NCBI RefSeq assembly: GCF_001870905.1
Contig: NZ_LNDC01000112.1
Location: 1 to 43,655, forward strand
Length of the DNA: 43,655 nt
Direction of reading: 5' to 3'
Source of the DNA: Geitlerinema sp. PCC 9228
GTDB lineage: Bacteria > Cyanobacteriota > Cyanobacteriia > Cyanobacteriales > PCC-9228
Numbering within the stretch: the first letter of the stretch is position 1; each line of letters begins with the position of its first letter. The position numbers were made by a program, and so were the translations under genes. The notes below the pieces were generated by a model. It was not told the origin of the DNA and made no database searches. It saw only the letters and a list, made by a program, of their open reading frames with translations. Shown piece by piece: positions 15,896-43,655 of the stretch.

Positions 15896-16311
15896 TTAAA
15901 AGCGAATCCCTACTTGTCCGTTAATCCCGCGTATGGCATGATATCCTACACCCAAAAAGATATTGCTAGGACTAACCCAATCACTGGACAAAAAATGACA
16001 TTCGTGTCGATTGCGTTCGGTTCGTCCAGCCTTGGTCTCGTAGCAGACTCCGTTATTTCGGTCATGACACCTTTCGCGGTCCAGCCTGAAGCTCTGTCGT
16101 TCGTCGTTAAACAGGTCTAGGTGATTCTAGAAAATCCAGTGCGGCGGATGCCAAAAGCCGAAATCACATTGGCGAGGAAAACTTAACCCGCAAACAGCGG
16201 AGTTCATCCATAAAGCTGACTTAACGCAGGTTCGGCAAAACCAATTGTCCCAATTGTCGCGATGCCAATGGTGGCACTAGCAGCGAATAGTTTTTGAAAA
16301 AGGAAATGCAT
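15896..16311 (-). pseudogene. Decayed secreted, possibly beta-barrel, small protein gene
   Basis: On the minus strand, ATG 16311 opens a 35-codon frame encoding a classic signal peptide (MHFLFQKLFAASATIGIAT, ending AEPALSQ) that hits TGA at 16204-16206. A different frame downstream stays open for about 75 codons and ends YHAIRGINGQVGIRF, with a terminal Phe as in outer-membrane beta-barrels, at stop 15896-15898. The two halves together span about 138 codons, a sensible length for one small secreted protein. They are now separated by stops and a frameshift. The family was not recognised. The ends could also belong to two different remnants. Confidence 0.45.
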
Positions 16312-43516: not shown

Positions 43517-43655
43517 GGAGAGAATCCCCTCTGGGGTGGAAAGGAAGTGCATTCCTGGAAACTTTAAGGTGTCGTCACTGACCCCGCGCTAAAGCGACGG
43601 GGCTTGGGAACAGCCAGGTTCCCGTAGTAGTGGCTAGACCAAGAGCCGATAGTAG
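43517..43655 (+). ncRNA. HEARO-type RNA (IscB omega RNA), partial
   Basis: The sequence is a string of hairpins in the order I recall for HEARO RNAs: CCCC-TCT-GGGG (43526-43536), AGGAA-GTGCA-TTCCT (43542-43556), CCCCG...CGGGG around CGCTAAAGCG (43582-43602), GGGAAC-AGCCAG-GTTCCC (43606-43623) and GGCT...AGCC (43632-43647). The segment CTTGG (43603-43607) can pair with CCAAG (43639-43643), a pseudoknot. HEARO RNAs are the guide RNAs of IscB nucleases and lie 5' of the iscB gene, so an iscB gene is expected beyond the right edge. The window ends inside the RNA. The 5' end, where a guide would be copied from flanking DNA, was not fixed. Confidence 0.65.

What the first reader, a model, noticed from the sequence alone, without database searches (positions are those of the whole stretch)
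43517..43655. HEARO/omega RNA cut by the window edge
The hairpin order and the segment CCGCGCTAAAGCGACGGGG then GGGAACAGCCAGGTTCCC match what I recall of HEARO RNAs, which guide IscB nucleases of IS200/IS605-like elements. If right, an iscB gene lies a few hundred bases to the right, and the guide should match the DNA just left of the element. It also suggests that the CHAT island is bordered by a mobile element.
Basis: partly seen in the sequence, partly recalled or inferred. Interest (0 to 1): 0.6.

Follow-up and report, generated by a model that had tools for sequence, protein, structure and literature searches.

The report
Guide-RNA end of IsrB mobile element
The end of this DNA piece is the first 82 bases of a guide RNA that belongs to a small mobile element of the known IsrB kind (an RNA-guided DNA nickase related to the ancestor of Cas9), which has spread to about twenty places in this genome; it is a clear but ordinary example of a known system.

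Summary
The element starts at 43574, not 43517: 43574-43655 are the first 82 nt of a HEARO-like omega RNA, cut because the contig ends there. Rfam HEARO matches weakly (23.6 bits, truncated, gathering 83); three copies elsewhere in the genome run further and reach 44.7-49.3 bits. The three stems covary strongly with cyanobacterial relatives.

The partner is most likely isrB, not iscB. Eight of nine fetched relatives are followed by an HNH-less isrB; the ninth ends inside the RNA. Best solved match: nickase DtIsrB, E 1.5e-54. In this genome the left end occurs at least 23 times and a right end at least 20 times, nearly all at contig ends; one right end reads back into an IsrB C-terminus. All 20 right ends are followed by TTGA, a published IsrB target-adjacent motif. 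In a relative, the site without the element survives in a sister genome: guide, then ATGA.

New multi-copy member of a known kind. Whether this very copy carries isrB cannot be seen.

The parts
43574..43655 (+). Left end of the IsrB-type element = first 82 nt of the omega (HEARO-like) RNA scaffold, cut by the contig end
   Evidence: HEARO 23.6 bits truncated; repeat of at least 23 copies starting exactly here; covariation
43554..43573 (+). Presumed 20-nt guide taken from host DNA (length of guide from PMC9581776)
   Evidence: Lies directly 5' of the scaffold; unique in the genome with up to 3 mismatches; guide role inferred from relatives and the empty site
43574..43579 (+). 5' strand of the closing stem, pairs with 43629-43634
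   Evidence: 6 pairs, 90.4% of cells paired, 3 of 6 pairs with changes on both sides; present in the minimum-energy fold
43629..43634 (+). 3' strand of the closing stem
43582..43602 (+). First hairpin (SL1-like)
   Evidence: 8 pairs, 7 of 8 with changes on both sides, 86.5% of cells paired
43606..43623 (+). Second hairpin (SL2-like)
   Evidence: 6 pairs, 5 of 6 with changes on both sides, 87.8% of cells paired

Best explanation
43574-43655 is the left end of an IS200/IS605-like element whose 5' part is an omega RNA and whose gene is isrB (about 1.4 kb in the intact relative). The RNA takes its ~20-nt guide from the host DNA directly to the left. IsrB binds the scaffold, pairs the guide with DNA that is followed by NTGA (here TTGA), and nicks the non-target strand. 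The element sits exactly between the guide-matching DNA and the TTGA, so its RNA does not match the occupied site but matches the empty site left after excision; nicking that site would favour recopying of the element. Shown here: RNA identity and structure, many copies with exact boundaries, TTGA at all right ends, isrB as partner in relatives and at one right end of this genome, and one empty site in a relative that reads guide then ATGA. Inferred: transcription, nicking, the benefit to the element, movement by a Y1 transposase supplied in trans, the link between left-end and right-end repeats, and the presence of isrB in this particular copy.
For: HEARO match, truncated here and longer in three other copies. 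At least 23 copies of the left end, 22 of 23 running off a contig end. Relatives found by this RNA: 8 of 9 fetched loci carry isrB after it, the ninth ends in the RNA. RRXRR and no HNH in 3 of 3 proteins tested; DtIsrB 8dmb E 1.5e-54 against 6.3e-11 or weaker for IscB chains. Right-end repeat, at least 20 copies, one preceded by an IsrB C-terminus that stops where the repeat begins. TTGA after 20 of 20 right ends. Empty site in G070. Covariation. DtIsrB prefers NTGA/TTGA and two cyanobacterial IsrBs NTG (PMC9581776, passages and one section).
Against: No isrB is visible next to this copy. Left-end and right-end repeats are joined by inference: no contig of this genome holds both with the interior. 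The HEARO gathering score is not reached by any copy of this type, and HEARO is not detected at E<=0.1 in three of the twelve sources scanned (L102, L104, L105), although each has isrB. TTGA could in principle be part of the element; only C131 and the G087/G070 site speak for its being host DNA. The only complete isrB frame in the assembly (C169) is of another lineage. Seven weaker matches were not followed.
Confidence: 0.88

Rival explanations
1. This copy, and perhaps many of the others, is an RNA-only derivative: omega RNA plus right end without isrB, moved and served in trans. (A sub-case of the same element family, so its odds overlap with those of the best explanation.)
For: The interior is missing from the assembly. 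The same genome has 18 RNA-only elements of the IscB type: HEARO followed 58-92 nt later by a right end, with no iscB match.
Against: The one right end that can be read further carries an IsrB C-terminus. Intact relatives carry isrB. No RNA-only copy of the IsrB type was seen, apart from the 81-nt remnant on C131.
Confidence: 0.25
2. A HEARO/omega RNA of an iscB element.
For: Same Rfam family; two near-complete iscB genes with HEARO in this genome (C89, C98).
Against: 46% and 54% identity to the two IscB-type HEAROs compared, against 84% and 73% for two isrB-linked ones; relatives and the right end carry isrB.
Confidence: 0.03
3. The end of a tnpB (IS605/IS1341-type) element; only the G+C hairpin resembles HEARO.
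For: The 24-base hairpin around GCGCTAAAGCGACGGGG also occurs beside a gene that I take for tnpB in G008 and in other genomes of the order.
Against: Outside that hairpin the left end matches an isrB-linked RNA of G371 at 87% over 131 of 132 nt, and the closing stem and second hairpin covary with IsrB RNAs.
Confidence: 0.02

Closest known systems
IsrB OMEGA nickases: DtIsrB (structure 8DMB) and the cyanobacterial CwIsrB and DsIsrB (PMC9581776)
   Same: HNH-less RuvC protein with PLMP motif, omega RNA directly upstream of the gene, NTGA/TTGA motif right of the target, guide at the 5' end
   Different: Multi-copy and nearly identical in this genome (at least 20); the gene of this very copy is not seen; nicking not tested
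Rfam RF02033 HEARO and IscB elements
   Same: Overall architecture of the 5' domain; HEARO model aligns from position 1
   Different: Scores stay below gathering; partner protein lacks HNH; only 46-54% identity to two IscB-type HEAROs of the same genome
Standalone omega RNAs of IscB type (recalled from the literature on Ktedonobacter; no call)
   Same: The 18 RNA-only IscB-type elements of this genome fit that description
   Different: They are a separate set from the element at the window end

Membership tests
IsrB OMEGA element | Omega RNA with closing stem and two 5' hairpins as in IsrB RNAs | tested here: met
   Alignment to 37 other sequences, covariation score 0.515 against 0.172 shuffled
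IsrB OMEGA element | isrB gene directly after the RNA, in this copy | not testable with these tools
   The contig ends at 43655
IsrB OMEGA element | isrB gene directly after the RNA, in the element family | tested here: met
   8 of 9 fetched relatives; one right end of this genome reads as IsrB C-terminus
IsrB OMEGA element | Protein with PLMP and RuvC but no HNH | tested here: met
   In relatives: RRXRR only, no HNH in 3 of 3; aligned to DtIsrB over residues 2-354; PLMP and DPGK motifs read from the alignment
IsrB OMEGA element | Target-adjacent motif NTGA to the right of the guide-matching DNA | tested here: met
   TTGA after 20 of 20 right ends; empty site of a relative reads guide then ATGA
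IsrB OMEGA element | RNA-guided nicking of the non-target strand | not testable with these tools
   Needs an in vitro assay
Rfam HEARO (RF02033) | Score at or above the gathering threshold of 83 bits | tested here: not met
   23.6 bits here (truncated); 44.7-49.3 in longer copies; 38.6-54.2 in relatives, none in 3 of 12 sources
IscB element | RuvC-HNH (IscB) protein after the RNA | tested here: not met
   Homologous RNAs are followed by HNH-less proteins; the guided_IscB model reached 101.5-105.8 bits of the 175 required. Not testable for this copy itself

The most novel reading that the evidence does not exclude
This genome may be a hot-spot of RNA-guided selfish DNA in which most copies are bare guide RNAs: 18 RNA-only HEARO elements of about 375 bp relying on two iscB genes, plus some twenty nearly identical IsrB-type elements of which many may also lack their gene. 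A mobile element that is little more than a guide RNA, with dozens of self-chosen guides served in trans by one or two nucleases, could be tested directly here.
Probability: 0.25. Interest if true: 0.5.

Novelty: new member of a known kind. Interest (0 to 1): 0.3.

Why it matters
It shows that a short HEARO-like stretch at a contig end can be assigned to an IsrB (nickase) element by combining relatives, repeat copies and an empty site. The near-identity of the copies suggests a recent burst, so some twenty natural guides with their flanks come from one genome. That is useful material for asking what a nickase, as opposed to a double-strand cutter, does for the spread of such an element; as far as I recall this is still open (no search was made for that claim).

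Tried and rejected
Rejected: IscB partner; tnpB end or chance hairpin. Led nowhere: an exact 24-letter pattern from the RNA in genome contigs gave no match (the tool says that records of the window's own genome may be left out); a search of plasmid records gave none; the window guide has no second place in the genome with up to 3 mismatches (its backwards control had 1); the right flank of the window copy could not be found, because the right ends cannot be assigned to the left ends. The microRNA-family matches and CRISPR-DR35 (20.8 bits, gathering 35) were taken as chance. Seven weak matches (E 0.001-0.009: G117, G120, G144, G225, G302, G322, G349) were not followed. No structure prediction was run, since DtIsrB is a clear sequence match.

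Limits of counts: only 40 of 81 and 40 of 94 first-look candidates were scored, so 23 and 20 are lower bounds. In one search, 2 of 77 upstream regions (L163, L229) were dropped as too short; one search used 35 of the remaining 75 (chosen by eye before counting, leaving out long loop insertions and near-duplicates) plus the window, G371 and G087. In one search at most 1.7 kb downstream was examined, less where a contig or locus ended. In one search the right-end tail was found by pattern in 10 of 18 RNA-only copies (lengths 320-388; the pattern itself demanded a final GA); the other 8 were printed but not measured.

Names that come from no call: pntA/pntB for the genes around the G087 element; IS200/IS605 kinship; the retention model; the Ktedonobacter case; 'cyanobacterial' for the 80 titles (read from the names, not looked up); tnpB in L037/L040.

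Papers: PMC9581776 was seen as passages and one whole section. All other papers were seen only in search listings.

Full report
What is there. The window is a whole contig, C112, of a 4.8 Mb draft genome in 223 contigs, and it ends inside a repeat. Scanning the last 1,056 bases against Rfam gives HEARO at 43574-43655, 23.6 bits, model positions 1-71 of 211, cut off at the 3' end. With gathering cut-offs nothing in the window is reported.

Where it starts. The last 216 bases were searched against the own genome (40 of 81 candidates scored). Of the 40 matches listed, 23 (the window itself included) cover the stretch from 43574 on over about 79-85 bases at 99-100% identity; the other 17 are a 24-base hairpin only. 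The 23 copies have 23 different left flanks. Twenty-two of 23 run off a contig end while still in the repeat, the signature of a multi-copy element that the assembler could not cross. Three copies run further: C189 to 162 nt, C146 to 141, C148 to 137, scoring 49.3, 44.7 and 48.0 bits as HEARO. The remaining copy, on C131, is cut after 81 nt and continues with TTGA and unrelated sequence.

What the element is. A search of 388 genomes of the order with 132 nt of the left end found 14 with a match at E<=0.01, the own genome included. I fetched nine loci from six of the 13 others. Eight of nine have an isrB reading frame after the RNA; in one of these (L098) the contig stops after 57 residues; the ninth (L099) ends within the RNA. 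Pfam finds RRXRR and no HNH in three of three proteins tested; the NCBI IscB model stays below its cut-off. The best solved structure is DtIsrB, 8dmb, E 1.5e-54 over residues 2-354 of 389, against 6.3e-11 or weaker for IscB chains. A scan of genome contigs kept the best 80 of 139 isrB-like loci, with titles that I read as cyanobacterial.

The other end in the same genome. Thirteen contigs fetched by place begin or end with an 82-base sequence (81 in two of them) that stops at TTTTACTTGA. A dedicated search found 20 such right ends (40 of 94 candidates scored). Nineteen of 20 run off the contig within one base of the repeat's inner edge. The twentieth, C151:13263-13345, has one extra base and can be read 219 bases further; it reads as an IsrB C-terminus ending ...RRSNKLCTA* just where the repeat begins. 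The left-end and right-end repeats are therefore most simply two ends of one IsrB element. The two G087 copies measure 1,380 and 1,379 bp from left end to ATGA, and isrB is the only gene of the element that I recognised there. The joining contig is missing from the assembly. The only complete isrB frame found in the assembly, at C169, is of another lineage, 57% identical to that of G087.

RNA structure. Thirty-five of 75 usable upstream regions, plus the window, G371 and G087, were aligned. For the closing stem and two hairpins read from the window, 88.1% of 746 cells are paired (shuffled 67.7), 161 cells have changes on both sides (shuffled 54.6, sd 5.2), and the covariation score is 0.515 (shuffled 0.172, sd 0.013; slid by one base 0.131 and 0.167). 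One measure does not stand out: pairs with any change on both sides, 15 against 13.3, reached by 54 of 500 shuffles. Not every pair holds: 12 of 38 sequences break the pair in columns 6 and 74, and 14 of 38 that in columns 14 and 36.

Target site. All 20 right ends are followed by TTGA; from the next base on the flanks are mixed. Published work gives NTGA, with TTGA preferred at 60 degrees, for DtIsrB, NTG for two cyanobacterial IsrBs among others, a 20-nt guide, and nicking of the non-target strand (PMC9581776; passages, one section). In G087 one copy sits between two flanks that, joined, match a continuous stretch in G070 of the same genus at 94% over 181 bases; only these two genomes were searched. 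The sister sequence reads ...AAAGGAGGCTAAAGC ATGAATCTG..., and the element lies exactly between GC and ATGA. Its guide thus matches the empty site with ATGA behind it. For the window copy the guide would be 43554-43573; it has no other match in the genome with up to three mismatches, so no empty copy of this site was seen.

Mechanism. The geometry fits the usual (recalled) view of such elements: the nuclease spares the occupied site and attacks the site left empty. Shown: the RNA, the boundaries, the motif and one empty site in a relative. Inferred: transcription, nicking and its benefit, and movement by a Y1 transposase in trans. Eight Y1 matches, at seven places and one with stop codons, exist in the genome.

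Against this reading. isrB is not seen beside this copy; the ends are linked by inference; no copy of this type reaches the HEARO gathering score, and three of twelve sources show no HEARO match at E<=0.1. A fair chance remains that this copy is RNA-only, since the genome holds 18 RNA-only elements of the IscB type.

Verdict. The partner is isrB in place of iscB, the start is 43574, and the neighbouring large ORF is merely next to it. It is a new member of a known kind, of modest interest.

Noticed in passing
window 15970-16187 (+): A second HEARO RNA inside the window, complete over model 1-211 at 75.6 bits (gathering 83, E 3.6e-15), with no iscB match and no right-end match within 1.7 kb downstream; it looks like a decayed standalone copy.
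   Followed up: partly
whole genome G000 (43 HEARO places); examples L002, L003, L004: 43 HEARO matches, 22 over the gathering score, but only two near-complete iscB genes behind them (C89, C98). In 18 a right end follows 58-92 nt after the RNA with no iscB match: compact RNA-only elements, 320-388 bp in the 10 measured, mean pairwise identity 0.805.
   Followed up: partly
L112 (G000:C169:7400-10500): An IscB-type RNA-only HEARO element sits directly in front of a complete isrB frame of another lineage, as if it had jumped into that element's own omega RNA; a nested insertion.
   Followed up: partly
L060 (G000:C131, copy at 49437-49517 minus strand): An 81-nt remnant of the left end is followed directly by TTGA and host sequence, as if the interior had been lost exactly up to the target motif.
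   Followed up: no
L048 about 1490-1840 (G000:C140) and L041 about 1170-1530 (G008:C1): A non-coding stretch of about 350 bp with similar ends: the TAAAGCGACGGGG hairpin on one side and a right-end-like sequence (80-85% to the IsrB right end) on the other, in two genomes; possibly another RNA-only element.
   Followed up: no
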